From a virus: a stretch of 49,730 nt of DNA. The notes beneath the pieces were generated by a model. The model worked only from the letters and a program-made list of their open reading frames with translations. It was not told the origin of the DNA and made no database searches. The translations under genes were made by a program, and so were the position numbers. The stretch is from IMG/VR virus record IMGVR_UViG_3300045976_000084, positions 1-49,730 of that record. One strand, written 5' to 3'. Positions 21,763 to 47,614 of this stretch are shown in pieces (the stretch's first letter is position 1; the number at the start of each line of letters is the position of its first letter).

Positions 21763-22952
21763 CCACGACTCTGCACAAAGTAGCTCCGACCGCCGATATT
21801 CACGCGATCACGGGGCTGTCCTACGCGAACGCAAGCGCGCGGCTGACCGCGGGCGCGACACTCGACTCCACAAACATCGATCGAGTTGCGCACCAGACGG
21901 ACAATGATACCTATTGGGTGTTCTTGGGCGCAGGAGTGTGGCGTCTGCTCGGCACGAATCGCCCGATCATCACGGATTCGACCACGGCGCGCACGTTCGG
22001 CATGTCAGACGCCGAAGCGTACTTTCGTTTCACGAATGGCGCTTCGATCACTGGAACCATTCCGCCGAACTCTTCTGTAGCTTTTCCGATCGGTACGGTC
22101 CTGGAGTGCTGCCAGGCGGGTGCTGGTCAGTTCTTGTTTGCAGCAGGCGCAGGCGTCACGTTGGGACCTGGCACGAACTTCGGCACGGCTGGCGTGGGCA
22201 AAGTGATCCGCGCGCGCAAGGTCGCAACCGACACTTGGGATATTTCTGGGGACACCGCGGCCGGCGGCTTTGCTGGGAACTTCGCAAGCCTGTTCTCAAG
22301 CGTGAGCGTGCTCCAGTATCTGCGCTCGGACCTCGGCTTGAGCGTCACGGGCTCGGTCGTGAATTCTTGGGCGGATCAGAGCGGCAACGCGCGCAACGTA
22401 TCAGAAGGCACCGCAGGCGTGGGCATCGGCGGCGTGACGACGGGTCTCAGCAGTCACGCGGGCATCGGCTCGAACGGGTCTACTCAGTTCGGCAAATATA
22501 CCCAGTTCGAGCCCGCGAATCCATATTGCATTCTTTGGGTCGGCCGTTTGCTCGCGACTCCGAGCTCTCCGGGTCAGCTCTTTGGCGATAACGGCGGCGC
22601 AGCGGGTAACGTGACCTTCGCAACGGGCGGCTCGAACAATCTCTACATCAACAACGGCGGAACGCTAGGGCCGTTGCTGCAGACCACCAGTCAATGGATC
22701 CGCGGCATCGCGCGCTTCGTGAACGACGGAAACGACTACCTAAAGGCAGGCTCTTCGACTTCGTCCACTGGCTCCGCGGGCAACGCGGCTGGCTCGGGTC
22801 CGCGTGGCATCTTCGCACGAGGAGGAGGTGGCGCTCCTTTGAGCTACGAGCTGCTTCTGCGCCTTGTTCTGTCGGGCGAGCCGAACTCGAGTGAGAAGAC
22901 TGCGTTCGATTCCGCGGTGACTTCGTTCTACGGCGCTTCAGTGCAGGTTTGA
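21759..22952 (+). CDS. Tail fibre with LamG/concanavalin-like domain, 397 aa
   Basis: The N-terminal ~150 residues contain TYWVFLGAGVWRLLG and FAAGAGVTLGPGTNFGTAGV, a beta-structured shaft seen in phage fibres. From about residue 190, LGLSVTGSVVNSWADQSGNA and the later YELLLRLVLSGEPNSSEKTA fit a jelly-roll LamG-type domain (a carbohydrate-binding fold). It is a probable receptor-binding protein. It ends TGATG with the esterase fibre. Confidence 0.7.
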   Translation: MTTTLHKVAPTADIHAITGLSYANASARLTAGATLDSTNIDRVAHQTDNDTYWVFLGAGVWRLLGTNRPIITDSTTARTFGMSDAEAYFRFTNGASITGTIPPNSSVAFPIGTVLECCQAGAGQFLFAAGAGVTLGPGTNFGTAGVGKVIRARKVATDTWDISGDTAAGGFAGNFASLFSSVSVLQYLRSDLGLSVTGSVVNSWADQSGNARNVSEGTAGVGIGGVTTGLSSHAGIGSNGSTQFGKYTQFEPANPYCILWVGRLLATPSSPGQLFGDNGGAAGNVTFATGGSNNLYINNGGTLGPLLQTTSQWIRGIARFVNDGNDYLKAGSSTSSTGSAGNAAGSGPRGIFARGGGGAPLSYELLLRLVLSGEPNSSEKTAFDSAVTSFYGASVQV

Positions 22953-24493
22953 TGTCTGTATTGATGCAAGCTCGCTCCAGCGTCGACGGCCGCGTCTATT
23001 CGTGGCGCGCTGCGAGTGTCGATTACGCTGGCGCGGGCTTCCCCGGCCCAGGGCTGCCTTTGGATCCGGCTGTGTGTACGCGCGGGATCCGGCCCAGGCC
23101 GTTTCAAGCCTTGAGCCTGATTGGCGTGGCTTCGGCCGAGGCAATCGGTTTGCCTACTGTCGTTCGCGCGCCCGCTTTGCCTCTCGCGCCAAGCGACGTG
23201 ATCGCGTGGTTCGACGGCGATCAGCAAGCCTATTCCGATCTGGCGGGCACGACTCAGCAGAACACGCCTGGCGGCACGCTCGGCCGCGTCAACGAGACAT
23301 CTCCACTCACCGCGAACTGGCAGGGCGCGAGTTCAGCGCAGCGCGCGCTGAAAGACGCCTACGGCGTGCGCTCGTATTTCTACGGTTCTAGCTACCCCGG
23401 GATGCAACTGGTTCGGGGCGCGGCAACCGTGAACATGCAGGACGTTACGATCGTTGCGTCCTACCTCGAGCGAGACGGTCTGGGCGGGCCGACGATGGGT
23501 CTGCTCGGCACGACCAGCGCGCCATTCTGGGGAATGTACGGCGGGGCCGGGGGTCTCGGCGGATACGTGAACCAAAGCCCGCTAGCTTCTGGCCTGACCC
23601 CGCCACGCGGGCAGAAATGCTCTGTCGTGATGCGCATGACTCCGACTGCGCTCAAGACTTCGCTCTTGACGGGCGGCGTCACTACCTCGAGCACGGTTGC
23701 CGTTACGGTCACGGCGGGGTCTGCAGGCGCGGGCGGCTTTGCCCTGTTCCACGCAGGCGGCGGTGCGCAGGGCTACTATGGATCGGTTGCGCAACTCGTG
23801 ATCATCGGGCGTGCCGTGAGCGACTCGGAGGCAACCAGTTTGCTTGCCTGGGCCGATTCCAAGGCCATGCCCGAGGCATACCCAATCGGTCAGCCGCTGA
23901 TCGGGATCGTCGGGGACTCTATTGCTCGGGCTGGCGTGGGTGTGCAGTCGAATCAGGGTTGGTGGTCGCTGATGCTCCAGTCGCTACGCGGCGGCGTGGC
24001 TCCAGGCGCCGAGGCGTGCAATGTCGCGATCGTCGGCTCGGGTGTTGGCTCAGGCGGATCCGCACCATACTCCGCGCTGCTTCCGTTTCTGTCTTCGAGC
24101 CGAAAAAAGCAAGTCACGGTCGTCGCGATCGGCACGAACGATCTCGCGAATGGCAATAATACGGCCACGACGATCGCTAACATCTATGCCGTCTGTGACG
24201 CGCTCCGCGCGGCTGGTTCGAAGGTCGTGCTGCAAAACATCTTGCCGCGACAAGGGCTTTTCAACCTGCCCGGGACGCAAGCTTCTTTCAACGCGGCGCA
24301 AGCCACAGCGAACGCCGACTTTGCTGTCAATTGGGCTTCGCACGCCGATGCGTTCGTGGACGTAGCTTCCCTCACGGGCCTGAACGACCCGACGAACACG
24401 ACCTACTACCAATCGGACAAGGTTCACCCGACCGCGGCCGGAATGTCTGCGATGGCAACCCCGATCACGGCGGCTGTTGCCGGGCTTCTCTGA
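22952..24493 (+). CDS. Tail fibre/spike with C-terminal SGNH (GDSL) esterase domain
   Basis: Residues 1-45 are the attachment module shared with 21523-21762. A jelly-roll-like middle (about 80-300) begins DVIAWFDGDQQAYSDLAG and includes FWGMYGGAGGLGGYVNQS. The last ~200 residues are an SGNH hydrolase: block I GDS at about 318 (IVGDSIARAG), a Gly-rich block II (GSGVGSGGS), block III GTND at about 392 (IGTNDL) and block V DKVHPTAAG at about 489 giving the catalytic Asp-His. It should remove acyl groups from host surface polysaccharide during adsorption. Confidence 0.85.
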   Translation: MSVLMQARSSVDGRVYSWRAASVDYAGAGFPGPGLPLDPAVCTRGIRPRPFQALSLIGVASAEAIGLPTVVRAPALPLAPSDVIAWFDGDQQAYSDLAGTTQQNTPGGTLGRVNETSPLTANWQGASSAQRALKDAYGVRSYFYGSSYPGMQLVRGAATVNMQDVTIVASYLERDGLGGPTMGLLGTTSAPFWGMYGGAGGLGGYVNQSPLASGLTPPRGQKCSVVMRMTPTALKTSLLTGGVTTSSTVAVTVTAGSAGAGGFALFHAGGGAQGYYGSVAQLVIIGRAVSDSEATSLLAWADSKAMPEAYPIGQPLIGIVGDSIARAGVGVQSNQGWWSLMLQSLRGGVAPGAEACNVAIVGSGVGSGGSAPYSALLPFLSSSRKKQVTVVAIGTNDLANGNNTATTIANIYAVCDALRAAGSKVVLQNILPRQGLFNLPGTQASFNAAQATANADFAVNWASHADAFVDVASLTGLNDPTNTTYYQSDKVHPTAAGMSAMATPITAAVAGLL

Positions 24494-27838: not shown

Positions 27839-28309
27839 TCAGCGCCCGCCGTGCATGCGTCCGCAAGCCCACAAAAACAGGCCTACGGCGTCGATCGCGT
27901 TGTGTAGCTTGCTCTGGGGCAAGTCGGGAATGAGCGCCCGTTCCTGGGGCGCGAGGGCGCTCAGAATGCGCGGCTGATGAATCCGCTTCGGAACTGAGCC
28001 TTTCCACTCTTTCGGGTGCGGAGTCAGTACTTGCACGTCTTGCCCTGCGCGCTGGAGCCAACGGCCATGGTTCACGGCCAATGTGATTTGGTCGTTCGGA
28101 TCTTCTTTGCGCGGCCCCGGGTAGATTTGGGGAAGCTCGACCACCAATACTGAATGCGGGCAATGATCAAAAGGCAGCATGAGATCGTTGATCGAGCACA
28201 CGCCGCAGCCCAGGAGCATCGAATACAAGCCGAGCCCGTCCGCGCCGCGGATTTGGCCGACAGCCCAGCCCGAGCAGAGGCCCGGATCGATTGCGAGGAT
28301 CGTGCTCAT
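27839..28309 (-). CDS. RuvC-like Holliday junction resolvase
   Basis: The 156-aa product begins TILAIDPGLCSGWAVG, giving the first catalytic Asp of RuvC-like RNase H-fold nucleases; E in VVELPQIYPG and the acidic residues of KLHNAIDAVGLFLWA complete the metal site. The family cuts four-way junctions made during replication or recombination so that the genome can be packaged. Start at 28309 overlaps the stop of the polymerase gene (ATGA). Confidence 0.85.
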   Translation of the reverse strand: MSTILAIDPGLCSGWAVGQIRGADGLGLYSMLLGCGVCSINDLMLPFDHCPHSVLVVELPQIYPGPRKEDPNDQITLAVNHGRWLQRAGQDVQVLTPHPKEWKGSVPKRIHQPRILSALAPQERALIPDLPQSKLHNAIDAVGLFLWACGRMHGGR

Positions 28310-29325
28310 GCTGCCAGCCTTTCGATCTTGTCCTTTTCGACGATCTCGATCGTGCGCCCGTCGAGCTTGAACTTCGCTTTCGGCCGCGTGCGCTTGAGCT
28401 CGACAATCTTTTTGCCGATCGCGCGCTCGTAATAGTCCGAACCAAGCACGATTCCTTCGTCGTGCGCGGCGGGCTTGAGTTCTTTGCTCTTCGGCAGGGC
28501 CTGAACGATCGCGCCGAGCTCGTGATCCCACGGGAACAAGCGCCGGTCCGCGTCGAACAACGGAAACGCCTCTTTGGACCAGTACGCCGAGAGCAGAGGT
28601 TTGGCGGTCGCTGGTACGTGAGGCAGATACGGCGCGGCGCCGGCAACCATCACCCGCACGAGCTCGTGCGCTACGTCGTGCCCGCGCTCGCGAGCGCACT
28701 CGAGAATAAACTCATCGTGGATATAGTTCACCATGCGCGAGCCGAAGAGCGGGCTTTCTGGACGCACGTAGCAAGCCTCCGAGATCAGGAACGCGGCGTT
28801 CCCGGTCGCGTCCGCGCCGAGCCCCTGAAACCGCGAGTTGCACGCGGCCGAGTACGAGGCCCCGCCGCGCACGCGGTTCGAAAAGAAGTGCGTGAGAGTG
28901 ATCCCCGCCGCGCCCGCGCTCAGAGCAAGCGCCGCGTGGATCTTGAAGTATTCGACGAACTCCGGCCACGTCGCGAGCCATTCGCGCTTGAGCTTCTTGG
29001 CTTCGTCCAGAGTGAGAGTCACCTTGTACGCTTTGCGCGCGAACAAGACGAATTTCTCCGCGCCGAGTCCGCCGGCAAACCCGAAGTTTGCGACCTTAGC
29101 AGTCTGCCGCGCATCGTCTACTGACTTGTCCCCGGCCTCTTTGCGCTGTTCTGCTTCCTCGTACGAGATCTTGAGAATGGTTGCGGCTAGCGCAAGGTGC
29201 ACGTCGCGCCCAGAGTTCAGCGCCTCGGCCATTCGCGAGAAGCCGACGAGCTGAATACACGCCTCCGCCATCGTGCGCAGCTCGAGCCCGTCGTAGTCGG
29301 CAGACGCGTAGAGATTGGCGCTCAC
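28306..29325 (-). CDS. DNA polymerase family A, palm/fingers half (split gene)
   Basis: This gene begins exactly at motif A: after MSANLYA comes SADYDGLELRT, with the metal-binding Asp. Motif B is RQTAKVANFGFAGG (R, K and F-G of the O helix) and motif C is YIHDEF. The exonuclease and thumb domains are encoded separately at 31143-32204. The GTG start overlaps the stop of a 27-aa ORF. About 60 residues after the normal C-terminus are Lys-rich and unusual. The two halves must associate to make the replicative polymerase if this phage makes its own. Confidence 0.9.
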   Translation of the reverse strand: MSANLYASADYDGLELRTMAEACIQLVGFSRMAEALNSGRDVHLALAATILKISYEEAEQRKEAGDKSVDDARQTAKVANFGFAGGLGAEKFVLFARKAYKVTLTLDEAKKLKREWLATWPEFVEYFKIHAALALSAGAAGITLTHFFSNRVRGGASYSAACNSRFQGLGADATGNAAFLISEACYVRPESPLFGSRMVNYIHDEFILECARERGHDVAHELVRVMVAGAAPYLPHVPATAKPLLSAYWSKEAFPLFDADRRLFPWDHELGAIVQALPKSKELKPAAHDEGIVLGSDYYERAIGKKIVELKRTRPKAKFKLDGRTIEIVEKDKIERLAA

Positions 29326-29405
29326 TTGCGCACCGCCCGCGCGAGTCGAATCAGGTACTGTGTGCCGTATTCAACTCGCAGGTCGAGCGCTTCAAGGTCC
29401 GTCAT
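29322..29405 (-). CDS. 27-aa leader-like ORF before the polymerase palm gene
   Basis: MTDLEALDLRVEYGTQYLIR and then LARAVRK. Its ATG overlaps the upstream stop (ATGA) and its TGA overlaps the polymerase GTG (GTGA), so it links translation of the cassette to the polymerase half. No domain. Confidence 0.5.
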   Translation of the reverse strand: MTDLEALDLRVEYGTQYLIRLARAVRK

Positions 29406-29608
29406 CGACTCTTCTCCTCGGGCTCATCTCTAAACCAGCAAAAACGCTCGCGAGGCCAGTGGACGTAGCGATGATTCGCTCCGTCGGTGTACTGCGACAC
29501 CACGAGCACTGTGTTGCCAGCCGTCCAAAAGACGGCTTTCACACGCTCGTAGACTACTTGAACCGTTGAATCGTCGCGGTACAGCGTTAGCGTTCTACCT
29601 GCAGCCAT
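29402..29608 (-). CDS. Hypothetical protein, 68 aa
   Basis: ATG at 29608 is preferred over the GTG three bases earlier because GGAGG lies upstream. The product is basic and beta-like (RTLTLYRDDSTVQVVYERVK, FWTAGNTVLVVSQYTDG) with several Trp/Tyr/Phe residues near the end (WPRERFCWFRD). Part of the cassette between the polymerase halves. Function unknown. Confidence 0.6.
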   Translation of the reverse strand: MAAGRTLTLYRDDSTVQVVYERVKAVFWTAGNTVLVVSQYTDGANHRYVHWPRERFCWFRDEPEEKSR

Positions 29609-30129
29609 CACTCCTCCTTCTCCGGCGGTGCCGGCACGGGTGGCTTTACGCGGGGCATCCAGTGGGTGACCGAACTACTGGGCCACGTGCACACGCCGTC
29701 TTGGTCATCAAACCAATACTGATTGTTGCGATCGATCTCGACGGCGCCCCAAAAGACACCCCAGCCGTCCACGAAAAACCAAACAGCCTCACCGTGAACA
29801 GGCATGCGCTCGCTGAGCGGTATCCACTCCTGCTTCGGTTGCGCCGCCTTCAGTCCCGCAATCTGCGCTTCTAGCGCGTGGCATTGAGCTTTGTAATGGT
29901 CGCGGTCAATGCGCATGACCCGCACGTTAGTCGTTAGCTCAGCCTCCGCAGCTTCGGCGCGCTTCCGTAGCTCATCTATTTGCTGGTCGCGCCACGCAAG
30001 CTGCTCGGCAATCGCAGCCTTATGGTGCAGATTCTCGGTCGTCATTGCCGCGATGTGCTTGCAGTAGTGTGGTTCCAATTCCCACGGCTTTAGGTTCGGG
30101 TAGACAGGCCCAGGGTTACGCGTGCTCAT
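29608..30129 (-). CDS. DUF551-containing protein, 173 aa
   Basis: The N-terminal 95 residues include a coiled coil (IDELRKRAEAAEAELTTN). The C-terminal ~70 residues match DUF551: WIPLSERMP, then VWFFVDGWGVFWG, and a final VTHWMPRVKPP. DUF551 occurs in many phage accessory proteins but has no established biochemical function. It is the largest gene of the cassette inserted in the polymerase. Confidence 0.75.
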   Translation of the reverse strand: MSTRNPGPVYPNLKPWELEPHYCKHIAAMTTENLHHKAAIAEQLAWRDQQIDELRKRAEAAEAELTTNVRVMRIDRDHYKAQCHALEAQIAGLKAAQPKQEWIPLSERMPVHGEAVWFFVDGWGVFWGAVEIDRNNQYWFDDQDGVCTWPSSSVTHWMPRVKPPVPAPPEKEE

Positions 30130-30305
30130 CGGCTCTTCTCCTGACGGGCGCGCTCGGCTTCGACGTCGTATAGCCGCGCGTCGCGCGAGGCATCCCAGCA
30201 GTCGATAAACCGAGCCGTGGCCCCGAGAGCGAACTGCTCATAGCGCTTGAGCGAAAGCGCCGGATACGGCCCGCGCGGGTCGATGTAGAGCGCGGCAACG
30301 GTCAC
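30126..30305 (-). CDS. Hypothetical protein, 59 aa
   Basis: GTG start overlaps the upstream TGA. Sequence begins VTVAALYIDPRGPYPALSLK and contains RFIDCWDASRDARLYD. The pairing of YIDPRGPYP with D-A-S-R-D-A resembles a widespread small phage protein of unknown function. No catalytic motif is established. Confidence 0.6.
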   Translation of the reverse strand: MTVAALYIDPRGPYPALSLKRYEQFALGATARFIDCWDASRDARLYDVEAERARQEKSR

Positions 30306-30487
30306 GGCACGACCCGGCGCCACGTGAAATGTAGTCGCCCGCCATAAGCCGTCGTGTGCAATAACTCCCACGGATGATCGCCGTCAGTGTCCTGAGGCGC
30401 GGACGGGGCGTAACAAGACGCCGGACCCGTGCACAGATAGCCTTTGCTTAGGTCCAGACCCTCGGTAACTCGATATTCGTATTTCAT
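30302..30487 (-). CDS. Hypothetical protein, 61 aa
   Basis: ATG at 30487 overlaps the upstream TGA; a longer reading upstream only shadows the previous gene. The product starts MKYEYRVTEGLDLSKGYLCT and ends LHFTWRRVVP. Small mixed alpha/beta protein with two Cys. Function unknown. Confidence 0.6.
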   Translation of the reverse strand: MKYEYRVTEGLDLSKGYLCTGPASCYAPSAPQDTDGDHPWELLHTTAYGGRLHFTWRRVVP

Positions 30488-30621
30488 TCTTGACCCCTCT
30501 CGCAAGGCCACTTGAAGCCCGCTCTGACGTAGTCCCACGAGATCAGCACGAGGAACCCGATCAACAGACATACGCTGGCCAAGACAAACTTGGCCCGCTC
30601 GCGCAGCGTGCACCGAATCAC
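30484..30621 (-). CDS. Small membrane protein, 45 aa
   Basis: GTG at 30621 overlaps the previous stop. Basic N-terminus (IRCTLRERAK) then one hydrophobic helix (FVLASVCLLIGFLVLISW) and a short tail ending CERGQE. The positive-inside rule suggests N-in topology. Membrane peptides like this in early cassettes often alter host envelope or block other phages, but that is only a general expectation. Confidence 0.6.
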   Translation of the reverse strand: MIRCTLRERAKFVLASVCLLIGFLVLISWDYVRAGFKWPCERGQE

Positions 30622-31112
30622 GTGCAGACCTCGACCCAAAGGCGCTTGGCGTCGTCTCGCAGACCTGCGATCAGATTGTTGTGATCGTCCAGATCTTCGA
30701 TTTCTTCTGACAAGCGATCGTTCAAGTCGCACGCGACCTGAAAGAGCTTCTTCGCTTCTTCGACCGATCGCGAATAGAGCTCTCGCCAAACGCGGGCTTC
30801 GTCCCACGTGTTCGGTTCGTCATTTCCGCGCATTTGGCGCAAGGCGTACCGAGCGTTATCGAGATCTGTCTCCGCGTTGTCCGGCTCTTCGAACTCCCCT
30901 TCCCAGCGCTTGGGCTGCTCCAAGCCTTCCAGGGCTTGGACTCGGTCTAGTAGTCGCTCAAAACGCGAGGCTCGGTCTTGGTGGGCCAAGTCCAGCAAAA
31001 ACGCCCGGTCAGGTTCGGGCAGAGGTTTCGAACGATCGAAGGGCTCGATCTTGCGCGGGGTAGGTTGGGGCCACGGAGCGAGCGCGGGGGCTGCGCCTTT
31101 TCGTCTCGGCAT
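30618..31112 (-). CDS. Hypothetical acidic coiled-coil protein, 164 aa; first gene of the inserted cassette
   Basis: Starts at ATG 31112, only six bases after a strong -10 box, so probably a leaderless mRNA. N-terminus is basic and Pro-rich (MPRRKGAAPALAPWPQPTP), the rest acidic and helical (EEPDNAETDLDNARYALRQM, DLNDRLSEEIEDLDDHNNLI). No known domain. It leads seven coupled small genes that end in the polymerase palm gene. Confidence 0.7.
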   Translation of the reverse strand: MPRRKGAAPALAPWPQPTPRKIEPFDRSKPLPEPDRAFLLDLAHQDRASRFERLLDRVQALEGLEQPKRWEGEFEEPDNAETDLDNARYALRQMRGNDEPNTWDEARVWRELYSRSVEEAKKLFQVACDLNDRLSEEIEDLDDHNNLIAGLRDDAKRLWVEVCT

Positions 31113-31154
31113 GCCAACTAATTAGCACTTTAGGAAATTGCGTCAAGTGCTAAA
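31113..31154 (-). promoter_or_regulatory. Promoter with degenerate operator between the polymerase halves; leaderless
   Basis: On the minus strand TTGACG (31146-31141), 16 bp, TAATTA (31124-31119), six bases, then ATG at 31112. The TGA of the upstream polymerase half lies inside the -35 box. A degenerate copy of the dispersed operator (plus strand TTGCGTCAAGTGCTAAA, 31138-31154) overlaps the -35. Confidence 0.75.
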
Positions 31155-32204
31155 GCCACGCGGGACATAGCATTCACGAACGCCCGGCAATCTGCGGGGA
31201 TTCTGGACGCTCGGGCTTGAGCTCGTAGTGCGGCCGGTCTCCGCTAAATCGAAGTGCGTGTGTACCGGGTGGACCGTGCCGAGCTTTAGCCACTTCACGT
31301 CATTCGAGAGCACCTTTTTAGCGCTCGAATATTCGGTGTAGGCCTCGAGCGCAGGGTCTCCGGACGAGTTGCACGCGTCGGAGTCTAAAGACAGTTTCCC
31401 GCCTTTGGTCTTGCGCGGCGGCAGACCGAGCTCTTCCCAAGCGCGCGCCATGCGCGCCTCGGCTGCTTTCGTGTCTCTGGAGCCGTCCGGGCGCACCAGC
31501 CCGAGCTCGATCAGCCATTCCTTGAGCCGGTCGATCTCGGCTAGGGTCGCTGCTTCGAGCGACATGACCCCGCGCAAACTCGTGCGTAGGCCCCACGTCG
31601 CGCACAAATGAAGAGCGAAGAACTTGCGCGTCTGGCTGAACTCGTCCACCAAGAGCGCGGGGTCGTAGCGGTCGCGCTGGCCCTCGTACGCGGCCAAAGT
31701 CGCAACGGGATCCTTGAGCGCGTAAGACAAAGCCTCTGGGGGCCACTCCTGGACGGGCACGTCAATCAGCTCTCCGTACCGAAGCCGCCAAGGGTCCTCT
31801 TTGTCCACGGGCACGCCGTGCCTACGCCCGACTGCGCCTAGGTCGTATTGGAGCGGAATCCACGCGCCGTTCTTTGAAAAACCGCGGTAGCAACCCCGCC
31901 CGATGTCCGCCAATTTCTGGCGCCACATCGTGTCCGTGATTCGGTTCTCTCGCAGCGCGCGGAAGATCAGGGGCAAGAGCTCGGGCTCGAGCGCGGCGAG
32001 CACGGCAAGATCGTACGAGGCGTTATGCCAGATCGTGATCAAGTCCGGGTCTTCGAACCATGCCCTGGCAATCCTGGCCGCGTCCCACCTATTGGCAAGA
32101 CACGCTTGGCGCCCGGGCTCGACCCACTGCAAACACACGAGCGGCGGGGCCATGTTGCCAGGCCCGAAGAGCTTCGTCTCTGTATCGGCGGCTACGAGGC
32201 GCAT
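31143..32204 (-). CDS. DNA polymerase family A, 3'-5' exonuclease and thumb half (split gene)
   Basis: The 353-aa product has exonuclease motifs DTET (residues 7-10), WHNASYDL (about 59-66) and YALKDPVATLAAY. Near its end is the conserved thumb-to-palm region VHTHFDLAETGRTTSSSPS, then VQNPRRLPGVRECYVPR. It stops with GFST, the point at which normal polymerases continue directly into motif A. The remaining catalytic part is at 28306-29325. ATG 32204 overlaps the nucleotidase stop (TGATG); a GTG three bases earlier is the alternative. Confidence 0.9.
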   Translation of the reverse strand: MRLVAADTETKLFGPGNMAPPLVCLQWVEPGRQACLANRWDAARIARAWFEDPDLITIWHNASYDLAVLAALEPELLPLIFRALRENRITDTMWRQKLADIGRGCYRGFSKNGAWIPLQYDLGAVGRRHGVPVDKEDPWRLRYGELIDVPVQEWPPEALSYALKDPVATLAAYEGQRDRYDPALLVDEFSQTRKFFALHLCATWGLRTSLRGVMSLEAATLAEIDRLKEWLIELGLVRPDGSRDTKAAEARMARAWEELGLPPRKTKGGKLSLDSDACNSSGDPALEAYTEYSSAKKVLSNDVKWLKLGTVHPVHTHFDLAETGRTTSSSPSVQNPRRLPGVRECYVPRGFST

Positions 32205-32761
32205 CACTTCATCGTCAAACGATCCAGCTCATCGATCGCCGCGTCGTATCCAAAGCACCGAGTCACGTGCTCGGGCAGCTTGTCCGCGCGGTTCCAGGGT
32301 CGATCGATCAGCAAGACGGGCCCGGGGAAGTCTTGGGCGTTGTGCAACGCGTCGTCGATCAGCACATCGCCGCGCACGAGCTCTTTTCGTTTGCAAAAGA
32401 CCACGTCCTTTTTGGGGACCTCAAAGTGAGTCTTCAGCCAAGCCAAGCGCTCGTGCGTCCACAACTTGGCCGATTCGTACGGCGCCGTTACTACGACCAC
32501 TTCGCCGCGCATCCGGAGCCGATCGAAGAACAGGCGCGCGCCAGGCAGGACGGTCAAGTTTTGGCAAAAGCCGGGCGTGCTGGCGTGCGCATCGAATTTG
32601 TCCTGCAAGTGCTCTTGCTTGAGCGCGGCGAAGATATCCCAGTTCGTCACGTGCTTATGCTGGAACGGCGACCAGACACGCGGAATTTCGTAGTTCACGA
32701 ACTTGAGCACGCTGGCCACGAAATCGGCCAGCACGCCGTCTACATCGCACAAGATCCTCAC
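32204..32761 (-). CDS. 5'(3')-deoxyribonucleotidase-like HAD phosphatase
   Basis: The 185-aa protein shows the HAD core: DVDGVLADF (nucleophile D6 and acid D8), VVTAPYESAK (Thr of motif II) and DVLIDDALHNA (motif III/IV acidic pair). The family removes phosphate from deoxynucleoside monophosphates. In phages it tunes dNTP pools, consistent with its place among replication genes and with the DUF5664 pyrophosphatase at 36856. Confidence 0.8.
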   Translation of the reverse strand: MRILCDVDGVLADFVASVLKFVNYEIPRVWSPFQHKHVTNWDIFAALKQEHLQDKFDAHASTPGFCQNLTVLPGARLFFDRLRMRGEVVVVTAPYESAKLWTHERLAWLKTHFEVPKKDVVFCKRKELVRGDVLIDDALHNAQDFPGPVLLIDRPWNRADKLPEHVTRCFGYDAAIDELDRLTMK

Positions 32762-33159
32762 GACAGACCCCGTGCGCGGCGCAAGCGCTTCGCCTTGTTC
32801 TTGGCCTTTCGTTGTTCGAGCACCCGCGCTTGTTCGTCAGCGTCTTGTAACAAAGCCGCGCGCACTTTGGCCCTGATCGAACGGGCTTCGCTTACGTGCA
32901 GTGCAGAAGAGTCACTGAGCCCGCGCGACTTGAGCCGCGCTTTCTTCGACTTTCTGAAAAGTCTCTTGCTCGCGTTCTTGCTGAGCGCCTGCGCGTGCTT
33001 GAACTGCTTCGGGCCAGGCGAGGCGGTCTTGATCTTGGCGACGCGCTGCAAGCTCGAGTAGCTCGCGCCGGGCGTAGTGCTGCGCTTGAACGAGAGCTCG
33101 CGATACTGCTCGGCGCGCAGCCAGGGGCGGCGCGGGTCGACTTGAATCGAGGCGTTCAC
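32758..33159 (-). CDS. Highly basic hypothetical protein, 133 aa
   Basis: The GTG at 33159 is preferred because it overlaps the previous stop; a longer upstream reading is a shadow of the repeat region. The product contains many Lys/Arg (SKNASKRLFRKSKKARLKSR, ending EQRKAKNKAKRLRRARGLS). Likely nucleic-acid binding, no specific family. Coupled to the nucleotidase gene. Confidence 0.7.
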   Translation of the reverse strand: MNASIQVDPRRPWLRAEQYRELSFKRSTTPGASYSSLQRVAKIKTASPGPKQFKHAQALSKNASKRLFRKSKKARLKSRGLSDSSALHVSEARSIRAKVRAALLQDADEQARVLEQRKAKNKAKRLRRARGLS

Positions 33160-34016
33160 TGCACACCCGCCTTGCAGATCTTGAGCACTTCCGTGGCTAC
33201 TTGCGCGGCTTTGATCAGGATCTGATCCGCCGACTCCGCCGCCCACACCGCCGCCGACACCGCCGCAGCCTCCGCCGACTCCGCCGCCGACTCCGCCGCC
33301 GACTCCGCCGACTCCGCCGACTCCGCCGCCGACTCCGCCGCCGACTCCGCCGACTCCGCCGACTCCGCCGCCCACGCCGCCGCCCGCGCCGACTCCGCCG
33401 CCCACACCGCCGCAGCCTCCGCCGCCCACGCCGCCGACCGCGCCGCCGACCGCGCCGCCGACCGCGCCGCCGACCGCGCCGCCGACTCCGCCAACCGCGC
33501 CGCCGACTCCGCCAACCGCGCCGCCGACCGCGCCGCCGACCGCGCCGCCGACTCCGCCAACCGCGCCGCCGACTTGGCGCTGATCGGGTCCGTCACTTTT
33601 TCGCAGGCCTCGATCGCGGCCCACAAAGAGGCCTTGATCTCTGCGGACAACACTTCCAATGCCGCGAGCGATCGCAAGCTCAACGGCAAGACCTGACGCA
33701 CGTTCTCAATCACCAATCGCTTCACGAACTCGTGCGGATCGATTTGCGTGCACCCGAGTTGTTCGAGCGCATAAGCGCGCAGCGAGTCCGCGCGCACTTT
33801 CGGGCTGCTCCAATACGAGCAATCGTTCAGCTCGATCGCGTGCGCACGCACGACCGGGTGCACGCACGAGGGGTTGTCAGAGAAAGTCTCCCCGGTCGCG
33901 ATGCAAATGGCCGCTTCCACGCACATCTCGCCCTTTTCAGAGCCGATTCCGGCGCACAATCCGCGGTCGAAAATCTCGTTCAATTTGTCGAGGGTCTCAG
34001 TCGAAATCTGGTTCAT
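33156..34016 (-). CDS. Protein with long Ala-rich tetrapeptide-repeat tail, 286 aa
   Basis: The first ~145 residues are globular with several Cys (DRGLCAGIGSEKGEMCVEAA) and QLGCTQIDPHEFVKRLVIEN. Residues about 146-260 are built from SAAR, SAAE and LAES-type units that should form a long amphipathic helix or coiled coil. The C-terminal 25 residues (ADQILIKAAQVATEVLKICK) are again ordinary. Related Ala-rich repeat proteins are known in phages but have no clear function. Start 34016 has AAGGACAAG upstream, the same leader as the gene at 34960. Confidence 0.75.
   Translation of the reverse strand: MNQISTETLDKLNEIFDRGLCAGIGSEKGEMCVEAAICIATGETFSDNPSCVHPVVRAHAIELNDCSYWSSPKVRADSLRAYALEQLGCTQIDPHEFVKRLVIENVRQVLPLSLRSLAALEVLSAEIKASLWAAIEACEKVTDPISAKSAARLAESAARSAARSAARLAESAARLAESAARSAARSAARSAARSAAWAAEAAAVWAAESARAAAWAAESAESAESAAESAAESAESAESAAESAAESAEAAAVSAAVWAAESADQILIKAAQVATEVLKICKAGVQ
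33225..33580. repeat. GC-rich 6/12-nt tandem repeat inside a gene
   Basis: About 350 bp of imperfect repeats of GCCGCCGACTCC and GCCGCCGACCGC on the plus strand, with shorter GCCGACTCC units. The unit lengths are multiples of three, so gain or loss keeps the reading frame. All six frames stay open here, which produces spurious ORFs. Confidence 0.9.
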
Positions 34017-35099: not shown

Positions 35100-36856
35100 A
35101 CAAATCGCGGGCTGTGTGTCGGGAAATCGTCCGCGGCGCGCAGCGTCAAGTCCGCATAACAGAGCTTTTGCGGCTGGCGCTGGATTGTCTGCTCGTACTG
35201 CGATCGGCTGTAAGCCCGCCAAAACGCAGCCAAATCTTCCGCGCAGCCGAGCAGCACGTCACACAAGACTTCGTCCTCTTTTTGCCCGAGCCGGTGCGTG
35301 CGCGCGAGTAATTGTTCCCAGGCTAGCCCGTCGCTAGGCGAGCTCGTTACGAGATTATCCGACCACTTGTGCTGAAGATTCAGCCCGTCCCGGCATGAGT
35401 CGACGGACGCAATCACGGGGCCGTTCCAGTCTTCGATATATCGGCCCTTCTTGTCGCGAGCTTGCTGCCGGAAGTACGGCACGCCGGTCAGCTCTTCGAG
35501 CCGGTCCCCTAACGCGACGTGATCAACCCACACGATCCCTCGTGGGTGCTCTTCGATCCAAGCCGCGCACGCACGCAGAGCGGAGTCGCAGATCCACACG
35601 GGCTTTTGGTTCGGCTTGAACGTGGGCTCGGTGCGGCGCCAATCCACGACTTCTTCGGCGTTCGGGAAATGCTGACAAATGTCCAGCATCGAGTCGCCTT
35701 TGCCGTGCTTGATCTGCTCGCGAACGAAGACGTTGAAATTGTACCGAGCCTCGAGCCAGCGCACAGGCGGGCGGGGGTCCCACACGTAATAGAATCCGAG
35801 CGCTAGCTCTCGCGCTTTCTGTGCGACCGCTGCCCCGTCTACCAGGGGCCACCGATCGGGAAGCTTCCACTCGTCGCGCAGCAACCGAAACGCCTGGTCG
35901 ATCGCCGAGCTCGACGGGCTCACAATCTCGGAGATCTGGATCGACGCGCCAAGGTTCTCGTCCACGTCGCTTGTGGACACAACGCCTGGGGTTTGGTGTA
36001 GCCGGCGCGAGAACCCCACGCGCGCGGCTTGAGTCGGCTCGAGCCCGTTTTCTGAGGCGGACGCGAGCTGCAAGAGCGCGCCGGGCTCGTAGCGGCTGCC
36101 CTCGTTCACGAGCTCGTCGAGCGCGTACGACCATTCTTCGAGTTCAGCCCACACCCACGGGATTGGCGAGTGTCGAGGAATGCACCACTGAATGATATGG
36201 GCAAAGTCCTTGATCGACTTGCTCGTGATCGTCCCGCTCATGGCGCAGACGCGCAATGGCACCACGCGCCCGACCTCGTGCGCGTTCTGGTTCGCGGCGA
36301 TCTCTGCTTGCCGGCGCTCGGCGATGTACCTCGAAAACTCTTTCGTTCGCGAGGCCTTCTTGTCCTTCAGCTTGTGCACTTCATCGAACACCACCAAGTC
36401 GGGCGCGTACCGGTCGAGCGTGCCCCACTGGATCACTCGGTTCGTGTTCGGGTCGTAGCGGCGCTTATACCGGACCTGCGAAAAGTGCTCGTACGATTCA
36501 ATTCGAATCCAGTTCGGGATTCTCCAATGCCTCGAGAGCTCGCGCTGCTCGCGCTTCGTCTTTTCGACGAGCTTCGCCGGCAGCACGAGCAAGGGTCGGC
36601 GTGACTCGAGCACTAGAGCCAAGAGCAAAGAGAGCAAGGTCTTGCCACGACCCACGCCGATCGGGCCGAAAAAACCTTGGTTCTCCCAAGCTTCCTTGAG
36701 CCCCGCGGCCTGGATCGGAAACAGGCTCATCGAGCCGCACGGCCGCTTAAGCAGCGAGGTCAGCTCTTTTGCTAGCTCGGGCGCACCTTCGGACCACTCG
36801 CGGCGCGGAATGGCCAAGATGCGCCCGAGCTCGGCGCTGTTTCGGACGGCTCGCAC
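35093..36856 (-). CDS. SF2 (SNF2-like) helicase, 587 aa
   Basis: Motif I GVGRGKT (about residues 67-73), motif II DEVH (in LVVFDEVHKL, about 158), motif III-like MSGT, and C-terminal RecA-lobe residues including SVDSCRDGLNLQ and motif VI LLARTHRLGQKEDE. This is a DEAH-type SF2 protein, close in style to phage SNF2 helicases that remodel DNA-protein complexes or help start replication. GTG start overlaps the TAG of the upstream gene. Confidence 0.85.
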   Translation of the reverse strand: MRAVRNSAELGRILAIPRREWSEGAPELAKELTSLLKRPCGSMSLFPIQAAGLKEAWENQGFFGPIGVGRGKTLLSLLLALVLESRRPLLVLPAKLVEKTKREQRELSRHWRIPNWIRIESYEHFSQVRYKRRYDPNTNRVIQWGTLDRYAPDLVVFDEVHKLKDKKASRTKEFSRYIAERRQAEIAANQNAHEVGRVVPLRVCAMSGTITSKSIKDFAHIIQWCIPRHSPIPWVWAELEEWSYALDELVNEGSRYEPGALLQLASASENGLEPTQAARVGFSRRLHQTPGVVSTSDVDENLGASIQISEIVSPSSSAIDQAFRLLRDEWKLPDRWPLVDGAAVAQKARELALGFYYVWDPRPPVRWLEARYNFNVFVREQIKHGKGDSMLDICQHFPNAEEVVDWRRTEPTFKPNQKPVWICDSALRACAAWIEEHPRGIVWVDHVALGDRLEELTGVPYFRQQARDKKGRYIEDWNGPVIASVDSCRDGLNLQHKWSDNLVTSSPSDGLAWEQLLARTHRLGQKEDEVLCDVLLGCAEDLAAFWRAYSRSQYEQTIQRQPQKLCYADLTLRAADDFPTHSPRFVK

Positions 36857-37230
36857 TAGGCGGCTTTCTTGAGCTCGGGGCGATCGTCCAAATCAGTGCG
36901 GCCGCGCACAACGAATGCCAGCGCGAACATGAGCTCGCAAATCGCGTGCGCGAGATGGTTGAGCCCAGTCTCCGGATCGAGGTCTTCTCTCAGCCACCAA
37001 GCGGTCATGTGCCTTTGAGCGGCCGCGAAACACCGAGAGAACGAGATGCCTTTCTCCCAGTTCCGTTCAGCGTACTTGGCCGCGCCGAACTTGAGCACGA
37101 GGACCACGAGCAGGATCGCGTCCCACGCAAGCAAGTGCCAAGGCGCTTTGCCTCCGTCGAACTTCGTTCCAGAAGTCTCGGCAGGTATGACCCGTTGGCT
37201 GTCCTCGCATGCCTTGCGATTGAAGCTCAC
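36856..37230 (-). CDS. dATP/dGTP pyrophosphohydrolase-like protein (DUF5664)
   Basis: Pattern KFDGGKAPWHLLAWDAI, LKFGAAKYAERNWEKGI, AAAQRHMTAWWLREDLDPET and GLNHLAHAICELMFAL is typical of DUF5664 all-alpha MazG-like enzymes. They hydrolyse (d)NTPs and may adjust nucleotide pools for replication or counter host nucleotide signals. 124 aa is normal length. Confidence 0.85.
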   Translation of the reverse strand: MSFNRKACEDSQRVIPAETSGTKFDGGKAPWHLLAWDAILLVVLVLKFGAAKYAERNWEKGISFSRCFAAAQRHMTAWWLREDLDPETGLNHLAHAICELMFALAFVVRGRTDLDDRPELKKAA

Positions 37231-37537: not shown

Positions 37538-38098
37538 TCAAGCCGCCTGCAAGTACTTAGCGCACAAGCTCTCGAGCACTTGCGCGGTAGTCGCCACGTC
37601 ACCTTGGCTAGTGTGCTGCGCCGGGTTCGTGATCCCGAAATGACTGGCGAGCGAGGCGAGCGACACGCTCTGGAGCTCGCCAGACAAGAGCAGGGGCAGG
37701 GCCAAGCTCTGCACGTCCACCATGCGATGCGACATCTTCGGAAGACTGGCTCGCGCGCGCTTGTACAAGCCCTTGAGAAAGGCCACGTCGAACGCCGTGG
37801 CGGCCCCTGCCCACATGTCGGGCTCGTGGTGCGTCAGCCATTGATTGAGCTCGTACAGGTCTTCGACTACCAAGGGGCGAGCCCCGCGCGCGGCCCACGC
37901 CTCGCGCGAGTAGCCGTTCACCTTGGCAGCACCTTCTGAGCACGACCCTTGGGGCATCCAAAGGCGATAGAACACGCCGCCTTGCTCCGCTGGCACGAGT
38001 CCTTGTTCTGGAGTCCAGATCTGAATGAAAAGCTCGATCGATTCATCGTAATCCGGATCGAACCCCGTCGTTTCGTGGTCCAAGATTGCAAGCTTCAT
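37538..38098 (-). CDS. DnaQ-like DEDDh 3'-5' exonuclease
   Basis: Exo I: DHETTGFD (D7, E9), Exo II around AGAATAFDVAFLKGLY (Asp), Exo III around HTSQGDVATTAQVLESL (catalytic His and Asp). Length 186 aa fits stand-alone proofreading or RNase T-like exonucleases. The polymerase half at 31143 has its own exonuclease domain, so this enzyme probably works in recombination or RNA/DNA end trimming. ATGA overlap with the upstream gene. Confidence 0.85.
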   Translation of the reverse strand: MKLAILDHETTGFDPDYDESIELFIQIWTPEQGLVPAEQGGVFYRLWMPQGSCSEGAAKVNGYSREAWAARGARPLVVEDLYELNQWLTHHEPDMWAGAATAFDVAFLKGLYKRARASLPKMSHRMVDVQSLALPLLLSGELQSVSLASLASHFGITNPAQHTSQGDVATTAQVLESLCAKYLQAA

Positions 38099-38661
38099 TT
38101 GGCCCCCGTGCGCGCTTCGAACGCCTCGAGACGAGCGATCACGAATCCCGCAAAGTCTTCCGCGCTCAACGAGGTCAAGTGCGGATTGGCGAACGCGCCT
38201 TGCAGCGCGGCGCACTGCCGCGCGTGGTGCTCCAGGTAGTCGTCGCTCGGCACGAGCGGCGCCGCGGGCGCGGCCGAGCCTTTCTTGCCCTTCTTCGCGC
38301 CTTTCGCGGCTGCTTCGGGCAAGGGTTCCGGCGCTGGCGTGGGCGGCTCTTCCGCGGGCAGGGGAGGCGGCGGCAGAGTGCTCTCGGGCGGGTTCACCGC
38401 GAACGGCGCTGCGACTTGTCCGGGCGGTACTGCGGGCGCTGGAGCCGGCACGGGCACGGGCGCTTGGGTCGGTGCCCCGATCACGAACCCTGCCGCTTGC
38501 GGGGCCGGAGCCGCGCTCGGGTCGGGGATCGAGAACCCGCTAGGCGCGGGCGCTTGCGCGGCGACGGGTGCGGGTGCCGTGACCGCAGGCGCGGACACTT
38601 GGTTTGCCGGCGCGGCTCCGCCGATGTTCTTCATACGAGCCATAAACCCTGAAGCACTCAT
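38095..38661 (-). CDS. Pro/Ala-rich protein with basic linker, 188 aa
   Basis: After MSASGFMARMKNIGG a ~100-residue Pro/Ala tract (APAPVAAQAPAPSGF, VPVPAPAPAVPPGQ), then a Lys-rich stretch AAAKGAKKGKKG and a helical C-terminus YLEHHARQCAALQGAF. Similar arrangement of low complexity plus short conserved helix occurs in phage recombination partners. No domain recognised. Confidence 0.65.
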   Translation of the reverse strand: MSASGFMARMKNIGGAAPANQVSAPAVTAPAPVAAQAPAPSGFSIPDPSAAPAPQAAGFVIGAPTQAPVPVPAPAPAVPPGQVAAPFAVNPPESTLPPPPLPAEEPPTPAPEPLPEAAAKGAKKGKKGSAAPAAPLVPSDDYLEHHARQCAALQGAFANPHLTSLSAEDFAGFVIARLEAFEARTGAK

Positions 38662-46595: not shown

Positions 46596-46648
46596 TACAG
46601 GCTCAAAAATCGGTGGACTAGATTCGTGTCCTCGCTCATTGCTTGAGC

Positions 46649-47614
46649 ATGGGCAAACTCTACAAGCGCGGGAAGATTTGGTGGTACCAGCATCGAGGCG
46701 AGCGCACTTCGACGCACTGCCACGACAAGCAAGCGGCCGAGGCCGAGGCCAAGAACATCGAGCGGCGCGCAGCGGATCCGAACTACAAGGCCTCAGAAAG
46801 GCGCTTGGACGACGCGCTGGATCTGTACGTCCAAGAACAAAAGAAGCGCAAGCGCTCGGCTGGCACGCTGCGCATGTACTCGTACCACGTGCAAAACTTC
46901 ACGCGGATCTTGGGTGCTTCGATGCGCCTCAAGGACTTGAACAGCAAGGCCGTGGACAAGTACTTGGCCAAGCGCTCGGCCGAAAAGATCGAGCTCACGA
47001 CCCAAGCCAAAGAGCTCACTACGCTCCGCGGCACGCTGCGCATGGCTGCGCGCCGCGGTGAGTACCCGTACCCGCTTGAGCAAGTCATGCCGTACAATTT
47101 CAGTCAGAAGTACGTGCCAGGTAAGCGACACTTGACGCTCGAACAGGTCTGGAAGCTGATCGAGGTCTTGCCCCAGCGTCGTGCCGCGGTCGTGGCGTTC
47201 ATTGTGATGACCGGCGCGGACTGGCAAAGCGTGGCCTTGGCCGAGCCCCCAGACGTGCACGAGCACGACGTACTCGTCCGAGGCTCGAAGAACCCGAAGC
47301 GCTGGCGCACGATCCCGATCCTGGAACCGTTTGCGTTCATGGCCCTGCTCGCGGTGCCCCCATTCGAGCCTTGGGGGAACGTGCGCCGCGACTTGCGCGT
47401 GTACTGCAAAAAAGCCGGCGTACCCTACGTGACCCCGCGTGACCTCAGGCGCTCGCACGGGATGATTCTTCGAGCTCGCGGCGTCGAACCGCACTTGATC
47501 GCGGGCATGCTCGGGCACGCGGACTCACGCATGGTTGAGGTCGTCTACGGAACTTTGCCGGCGGACGCGCTAGCGAAGCTCATGCGGGCGCGGCTCGAGT
47601 CGGCCGCTGAGTAA
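46649..47614 (+). CDS. int: Tyrosine recombinase (phage integrase), 321 aa
   Basis: N-terminal arm-binding-like region (GKLYKRGKIWWYQHRGERTS), SAM-like core-binding domain (about 55-140: LDDALDLYVQEQKKRKRSAG) and a catalytic domain. Visible catalytic motifs are the Lys beta-hairpin VRGSKNPKRWRTIPI, PRDLRRSHGMI (second Arg), MLGHADSRM (His) and VEVVYG with Tyr about residue 300. The first catalytic Arg, expected in TG-x-R, is replaced: the sequence is TGADWQSVALAE (about residue 191). It lies beside attP. ATG 46649 preferred to TTG 46643. Confidence 0.9.
   Translation: MGKLYKRGKIWWYQHRGERTSTHCHDKQAAEAEAKNIERRAADPNYKASERRLDDALDLYVQEQKKRKRSAGTLRMYSYHVQNFTRILGASMRLKDLNSKAVDKYLAKRSAEKIELTTQAKELTTLRGTLRMAARRGEYPYPLEQVMPYNFSQKYVPGKRHLTLEQVWKLIEVLPQRRAAVVAFIVMTGADWQSVALAEPPDVHEHDVLVRGSKNPKRWRTIPILEPFAFMALLAVPPFEPWGNVRRDLRVYCKKAGVPYVTPRDLRRSHGMILRARGVEPHLIAGMLGHADSRMVEVVYGTLPADALAKLMRARLESAAE

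What the first reader, a model, noticed from the sequence alone, without database searches (positions are those of the whole stretch)
28306..32204. Family A DNA polymerase split exactly before motif A by a seven-gene cassette
The exonuclease/thumb part ends at VRECYVPR-GFST (31143) and the palm part begins with motif A SADYDGLELRT (29325). No conserved residue is lost. Between them lie seven coupled small genes with their own promoter whose -35 contains the TGA of the first half. There is no endonuclease, intein or intron signature. The palm half is translationally coupled to the cassette (GTGA), so polymerase stoichiometry depends on accessory-gene expression. Splits are known in T4-like gp43 of some phages, but there they are linked to homing endonucleases; insertion of a moron-like cassette here would be a different route.
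Basis: partly seen in the sequence, partly recalled or inferred. Interest (0 to 1): 0.8.

Follow-up and report, generated by a model that had tools for sequence, protein, structure and literature searches.

The report
Phage DNA polymerase split by cassette
A bacterial virus carries its DNA-copying enzyme as two separate genes with seven small genes wedged between them, cut just before the active site where several other viruses have independently cut theirs, so the two pieces probably assemble into one working enzyme.

Summary
A family A (Klenow-type) polymerase is encoded by two minus-strand genes, exonuclease/thumb (32207-31143) and palm/fingers (29325-28306), separated by seven small overlapping ORFs (31112-29322). 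It keeps 17 of 17 and 19 of 19 highly conserved columns. No intron, intein or endonuclease was found in the insert. Of 113 related contigs or records with both parts detectable, 107 have one open frame; the window's tree sister (L042) is intact. Six are also split, and the tree needs at least five changes. Their breaks and the window's fall in a 41-residue stretch before motif A. Two are filled by an endonuclease gene and another relative has an intein-like insert there, so the stretch looks like a homing hotspot. Phages MEP401 (cultured; its split is published) and QDWS535 are split at the same turn as the window; genome ct2os315, split there too, holds seven genes in the gap. Best reading: a functional two-subunit polymerase whose gene gap collects cargo, a new variant of a known kind. 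A cassette promoter is not supported and dependence of the palm on coupling is unproven. Assembly and activity of the halves are inferred, not shown.

The parts
31143..32207 (-). First half of family A DNA polymerase: 3'-5' exonuclease and thumb, ends ..RECYVPRGFST
   Evidence: 17 of 17 highly conserved columns kept
31113..31142 (-). 30-nt gap between first half and ORF1; overlapped by a 9-bp inverted repeat (31122-31153), no promoter match by scan
30618..31112 (-). cassette ORF1, 164 aa, no family at E <= 0.01 (weak Rz-like spanin match, E 0.083)
30484..30621 (-). cassette ORF2, 45 aa, one hydrophobic stretch (read by eye), GTG start overlapping ORF1 stop; not scanned against Pfam
30302..30487 (-). 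cassette ORF3, 61 aa, no family
   Evidence: (longer frame)
30126..30305 (-). cassette ORF4, 59 aa, GTG start, no family
   Evidence: (longer frame)
29608..30129 (-). cassette ORF5, 173 aa, DUF551 (PF04448, E 1.2e-6) and phrog_924 (E 4.5e-12); part of it matches 64 phage records, mostly Klebsiella and Escherichia phages (in the 15 rows listed the match is to roughly residues 9-57)
29402..29608 (-). cassette ORF6, 68 aa, no family, strong SD-like sequence (-11.7 kcal)
   Evidence: (one codon longer)
29322..29405 (-). cassette ORF7, 27 aa, stop overlaps the palm-half GTG; no family
28306..29325 (-). Second half of family A DNA polymerase: palm and fingers with motifs A, B and C (motif names recalled), plus a C-terminal tail
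   Evidence: 19 of 19 highly conserved columns kept
27839..28309 (-). RuvC-like gene by eye, start overlaps the palm-half stop; a homologue follows the polymerase in several relatives
   Evidence: MW202816 has a gene annotated RuvC downstream of its polymerase; no PHROGs hit
32204..32761 (-). NT5C-type deoxynucleotidase (PF06941, E 1.8e-26), stop overlaps the first-half GTG

Best explanation
A single family A polymerase gene was broken in this phage lineage at the turn R-P-G-Y | V-F just before (by DSSP one residue into) the beta-strand that carries motif A. Both pieces kept start and stop codons and are translated separately; the exonuclease/thumb polypeptide and the palm/fingers polypeptide associate without a covalent link into one Klenow-like enzyme (inferred). 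The gap between the two genes is a tolerated landing place in which accessory genes accumulated as an overlapping chain; ribosomes reach the palm gene by re-initiation at the GTGA overlap and/or its own SD-like site (inferred). Shown: two intact halves, colinearity with intact relatives, retention of conserved residues, recurrence of such splits, purifying selection on both halves where three phages share a split. Not shown: association, activity, expression.
For: Colinear with intact relatives: 28 of 54 loci with both parts matched by tblastn have exactly 9 nt (3 codons) between the aligned ends, 43 of 54 have 0-18 nt; palm 53-59% identical to the five closest intact relatives. 17/17 and 19/19 columns conserved in at least 95% of intact rows are kept; intact rows tested the same way keep 97% and 98% on average. 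Window end branch 0.54 against 0.73 for its intact sister L042, so no acceleration is seen. No PolB or PolIII-alpha found in the record. Relatives sharing one split (L025/L026/L028): dN/dS 0.16-0.22 in the first half and 0.08-0.27 in the second. MEP401/402 are cultured phages with split polymerase (PMC10580990 passages), MEP401 at the same turn; Alcaligenes phage QDWS535 has abutting halves. Split 43A/43B of phage 25 co-purify with activity and Aeh1 split NrdA is fully functional (PMC2988022 passages). The AlphaFold2 model of intact L029 (pLDDT 93.5) is Klenow-like and the break lies at the end of a 4-residue turn.
Against: No experiment on this phage. No relative sharing the window's own split or cassette was found, so selection after this particular split could not be measured and a very recent, inactivating insertion is not excluded. 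By DSSP the break is one residue inside the motif A strand. L025/L026/L028 depart at 3 of 19 conserved palm columns, so not every split palm is fully canonical. The conserved-column test is weak: few columns, and intact rows also score high. The record is a linear contig that may be incomplete.
Confidence: 0.78

Rival explanations
1. How the split arose: a homing endonuclease gene entered the polymerase gene and was later lost or replaced by the accessory cassette (fission by a mobile element first, cargo second). This concerns origin and can be true together with the best explanation.
For: Relatives L033 and L089 have a phrog_3322 endonuclease gene (E 7e-36 and 2e-27) in a break 12 residues upstream, with intact sisters L035 and L036; L107 is broken at that same place but holds only two tiny ORFs, as if the endonuclease had been exchanged; L011 carries an intein-like insertion in the same stretch.
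Against: The window's break is at a different residue from the endonuclease breaks, and no endonuclease remnant is recognisable in the seven ORFs.
Confidence: 0.4
2. The insert is a self-splicing intron (or a bypassed or spliced segment) and the two exons give one polymerase.
For: Group I introns are known in phage polymerase genes (said in PMC10580990; PMC2993671 for gene 43 of phage 25).
Against: No Rfam match in the window at gathering score nor an intron family in 29200-31300 at E <= 10; the palm half has its own start codon overlapping the previous stop and seven ORFs fill the insert.
Confidence: 0.03
3. The polymerase is inactivated and decaying; the phage relies on another polymerase.
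For: No relative with the same split is known, so selection after it is untested.
Against: No stop or frameshift in 693 codons, all tested conserved columns kept, codon-position GC alike in both halves (third position 0.77 and 0.79), branch not longer than that of its intact sister.
Confidence: 0.08
4. Assembly artefact joining unrelated DNA.
For: Virus contig from a public collection; raw reads not available here.
Against: The halves resume in register with stop and start codons in place and the gap is filled by overlapping ORFs in the same orientation; the same kind of architecture recurs in other contigs and in GenBank phage records.
Confidence: 0.03

Closest known systems
Split family A polymerase of OM43 phages MEP401/MEP402 (Zobellviridae; PMC10580990, OP830906)
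   Same: Exonuclease/N-terminal part and C-terminal palm in two ORFs; the MEP401 break aligns with the window's, directly before motif A; small insert not recognised as an endonuclease.
   Different: Distant polymerase lineage (first halves share only short BLAST matches, best E 0.004); one 77-aa ORF instead of seven; the authors leave open an intron. MEP402's break was not aligned here.
Split polymerases in GenBank records of Alcaligenes phage QDWS535, Caudoviricetes ctOsX528 and ct2os315
   Same: Break at the same turn; ct2os315 has seven annotated genes (3.6 kb) between the halves.
   Different: MEP401-like lineage by palm similarity; QDWS535 has no insert; ct2os315 cargo includes genes annotated cytosine methyltransferase and stomatin-like; ctOsX528 appears to have a one-base shift inside motif A.
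Split gene 43 (PolB) of T4-like phages 25 and 44RR
   Same: Replicative polymerase encoded as two polypeptides that co-purify and are active (phage 25); the 44RR break holds an untranslated sequence (PMC2988022, passages).
   Different: Family B enzyme, no multi-gene cassette described in the passages seen.
Aeh1 nrdA split by mobE
   Same: Essential enzyme split by an inserted gene, still functional (PMC2988022, passages).
   Different: Ribonucleotide reductase; the insert is a homing endonuclease.
MIJ3 split PolB with intein and HNH gene (PMC6892783)
   Same: Phage polymerase in two ORFs around another gene (passages).
   [quoted passage not shown] family B.

Membership tests
Two-gene split family A phage polymerase (MEP401 type) | exo/thumb and palm in separate ORFs, break directly before motif A | tested here: met
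   alignment of window, MEP401, QDWS535, ctOsX528 and ct2os315
Two-gene split family A phage polymerase (MEP401 type) | descent from the same split polymerase lineage | tested here: not met
   window is nested among intact relatives of another lineage; first halves barely similar. It works like MEP401 but is most simply convergent; no joint tree was built
Split T4-like gp43 | family B polymerase | tested here: not met
   PF00476 match, no PF00136 in the record
Endonuclease-mediated gene fission | homing endonuclease gene in the break | tested here: not met
   none among the seven ORFs: PHROGs all seven, Pfam six, NCBIfam six; met in relatives L033 and L089
Group I or II intron | intron RNA signature in the insert | tested here: not met
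Split intein | intein splicing blocks at the ends of the halves | tested here: not met
   by eye only: the first half ends four residues after VPR and the second starts a few residues before motif A, leaving no room; relative L011 shows an intein-like insert for comparison
Functional two-subunit polymerase | halves associate and polymerise DNA | not testable with these tools
   needs protein work
Functional two-subunit polymerase | both halves under purifying selection after the split | tested here: inconclusive
   met for L025/L026/L028; no relative shares the window's split

The most novel reading that the evidence does not exclude
The turn before motif A is a general, repeatedly used fission point of phage family A polymerases. 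Once cut, the gene pair becomes a stable two-subunit enzyme and the gap a protected cargo slot, because losing the cargo by imprecise deletion would damage the polymerase; translational coupling through the cargo then ties palm-subunit supply to accessory-gene expression.
Probability: 0.3. Interest if true: 0.7.

Novelty: new variant of a known kind. Interest (0 to 1): 0.52.

Why it matters
It turns an isolated oddity into a testable rule: at least five separate breaks in one polymerase family fall in the same 41 residues, and a distant lineage is cut at the window's own turn. That offers a natural set of split polymerases (two of them with intact sisters 71% and 86% identical) for studying how enzymes become two-subunit machines, a possible design for split polymerases, and a route by which phage essential genes acquire embedded cargo.

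Tried and rejected
Intron: Rfam over the whole window and, laxly, over the insert gave no intron family; nothing at gathering score over L033, L025, L026, L028, L011; nothing of the kind in MEP401's break at E <= 1. Own promoter: scan negative. The inverted repeat TTAGCACTT-N14-AAGTGCTAA at the stop of the first half looked like an operator, but 24 perfect 9-bp inverted repeats with spacer 3-20 occur in the window and the element is not repeated elsewhere: set aside. Flanking direct repeats of the insert: longest shared word 6 nt. Cassette homologues: none convincing in 131 other loci (best E 0.053); none for ORF1 in the phage collection or IMG/VR; ORF5 only partial matches in phages and no pattern match in IMG/VR; ORFs 2, 3, 4, 6 and 7 were not searched in the collections. 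Close relatives by single sequence: none; alignments were needed. Survey blind to breaks elsewhere? Checked: only the six split loci have the parts in more than one frame. Papers: ten searches; passages read in PMC7824862, PMC6892783, PMC10580990, PMC10354031, PMC10448857, PMC2988022, PMC2993671; PMC6302109 on phage family A polymerases holds none of the words split, interrupted, intein, truncated.
Full report
Observation. The window is a whole IMG/VR virus record of 49,730 bases, classed linear. It encodes matches to TerL, portal, major capsid protein, tail sheath, an integrase, a helicase and exonucleases. The polymerase lies on the minus strand in two ORFs: 32207-31143 (354 aa) and 29325-28306 (339 aa). 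Pfam assigns the second to DNA_pol_A (E 2e-19); the first has weak exo1 and DNA_pol_A matches below the curated cut-offs but is clearly homologous to the first part of intact relatives. Between them lie seven ORFs of 164, 45, 61, 59, 173, 68 and 27 aa whose stops and starts overlap by 4 nt (once by 1 nt), the last overlapping the palm GTG; only the junction from first half to ORF1 has a gap, 30 nt.

No removable element found. No Rfam family reaches its gathering score in the window, and at E <= 10 the insert region gives one microRNA model, E 1.2. No endonuclease family was matched: PHROGs for all seven ORFs, Pfam for six (not ORF2), NCBIfam for six (not ORF7). ORF5 is DUF551/phrog_924. The palm start has an SD-like score of -7.1 kcal, similar to ORF5's -7.4, so it need not depend on coupling alone; the host's own anti-SD is not known.

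Relatives. The nearest annotated phage in the collection, MW202816 (Manatee Spring), has one continuous polymerase gene, about 30% identical. Alignment-based scans of IMG/VR and of GTDB genomes gave 126 loci. Of 132 loci held, one is the window itself and ten repeat contigs already held; of the remaining 121, eight show only the second part (seven in a long open frame, one cut by the contig end), and 113 show both: 107 in one open frame, six split (L025, L026, L028, L033, L089, L107). The 113 include near-identical contigs and 20 loci in which only the end of the first part matches, 19 of them distant relatives and one (L047) cut by its contig. Breaks elsewhere in the gene were looked for and not found. 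In several of the 17 loci listed, helicase, polymerase and RuvC-like gene come in this order.

Tree. Of the 113 plus the window, 30 rows were left out by score (C match not over 125 bits or N match not over 90 bits; none of them split) and L130, L127, L047 were dropped as near-copies or fragment, leaving 81 rows. The short-search tree needs five changes between split and intact, and starred branches alone force five. The window sits with intact L042 (98, starred), L089 with intact L036 (86% identical), L033 with intact L035 (71%), L107 with intact L114 (90, not starred), and L025/L026/L028 beside intact L027 (92, not starred). By path length the nearest row to the window is intact L031; its highest identity is 54%, to intact L029. 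The window's end branch (0.54) is shorter than L042's (0.73).

What fills the other breaks. L033 and L089: an ORF of 199 and 145 aa matching phrog_3322 endonuclease (E 7e-36, 2e-27), 45% identical to each other over 91 columns; neither has a Pfam or NCBIfam match. L107: two ORFs of 44 and 48 aa at the same place. L025, L026, L028: a small ORF resembling sigma-70 region 4, below Pfam's cut-off. In L033, L089, L025 and L026 the second half's first start codon overlaps the previous stop; in L028 it follows directly; in L107 a GTG overlaps the stop by eye, although the open frame has an earlier GTG. L011, counted intact, has an in-frame insertion beginning CVSGDTLV and ending FSHN before C, an intein by its recalled end motifs, in the same stretch. 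On the AlphaFold2 model of intact L029 (pLDDT 93.5; Klenow-like by Foldseek) the breaks, placed by eye, lie at bonds 325, 354 (three times) and 366. A 41-residue span for five random bonds has P 7e-5, or 2e-4 if only loop-touching bonds are allowed; counting L033 and L089 as one event gives 1.3e-3 to 1.7e-3. By DSSP the window's bond is one residue past the turn, inside the motif A strand.

Function. The window keeps 17 of 17 and 19 of 19 columns conserved in at least 95% of intact rows; intact rows scored against the others keep 97% and 98% on average. For three phages sharing one split, dN/dS is 0.16-0.22 (first half) and 0.08-0.27 (second half); for split L089 against intact L036 it is 0.15 and 0.09, for L033 against L035 0.18 and 0.08, the last with saturated dS. 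No PolB or PolIII-alpha was found in the window, though the record may be incomplete.

Comparison with what is known. MEP401/402 (PMC10580990; passages read) have the polymerase in two ORFs around one small unknown ORF, and the authors leave open an intron; they also report split polymerases in most of their group I genomes. In OP830906 the first ORF ends ..NLQNFDGEIKTLFLSRYGE and the second begins MILNADAKALE, the same turn as the window. Of 441 phage records matched by its palm half I looked at the best five, MEP402 by listing only: QDWS535 has abutting halves, ctOsX528 one small ORF annotated R67 dihydrofolate reductase and apparently a one-base shift in motif A, ct2os315 seven annotated genes over 3.6 kb. 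First halves of this lineage and the window share only short matches (best E 0.004), and the window is nested among intact relatives, so the shared site is most simply convergence; no joint tree was built. T4-like phage 25 and 44RR gene 43, and Aeh1 nrdA, show that split phage enzymes can be functional (phage 25, Aeh1) and that a split gene need not hold an endonuclease (44RR) (PMC2988022, passages). MIJ3 is a split-intein case (PMC6892783, passages). In ten paper searches I saw no description of recurrent fission before motif A; most subscription papers are not in that library.

Verdict. The finding is real and the enzyme is probably a working two-polypeptide polymerase. As a kind it is known; the seven-gene cassette, the shared break with MEP401-type phages and the clustering of at least five independent breaks are the parts I did not see in print. 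Whether the window's break began with an endonuclease cannot be decided here.

Noticed in passing
L011:9173-10080: Relative with an intein-like in-frame insertion in the polymerase between GRTS and C..NLQN, in the same stretch as the breaks.
   Followed up: partly
L092, polymerase from 5001: Polymerase match spans 886 aa, about 260 more than most relatives, suggesting a large in-frame insertion; its place was not determined.
   Followed up: no
window 31122-31153: Perfect 9-bp inverted repeat straddling the stop of the first half; 24 such repeats occur in the window, so probably chance.
   Followed up: yes
window 33156-34016: ORF rich in repeated SAARSAARLAES-like units with 9/12-nt spacing; overlapping frames on both strands are also open.
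   Followed up: no
window 36856-37230: T7-lysozyme-like homologue (phrog_801, phrog_2252) sits in the replication module next to the helicase; homologues lie near the polymerase in several relatives.
   Followed up: partly
window 37538-38215: Match to phrog_192, DNA polymerase exonuclease subunit (E 4e-23), in a phage whose polymerase first half already carries an exonuclease domain.
   Followed up: no
window 28306-28524: The palm half has a C-terminal tail of about 70 aa, absent from 7 of the 8 aligned relatives; L036 and split L089 have a partly similar tail, so it is not tied to the split.
   Followed up: partly
window 22949-24493 and 46643-47614: ORF with lipase match (phrog_6102) and an integrase match (phrog_1), so the phage may be temperate.
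   Followed up: no
L136:2489-2530: In ctOsX528 the palm half seems to carry a one-base shift in an A-run within motif A; sequencing error or real change not decided.
   Followed up: partly
L033:5700-6260: A second endonuclease (Endonuclease_7, E 8e-19) lies directly upstream of the split polymerase.
   Followed up: no
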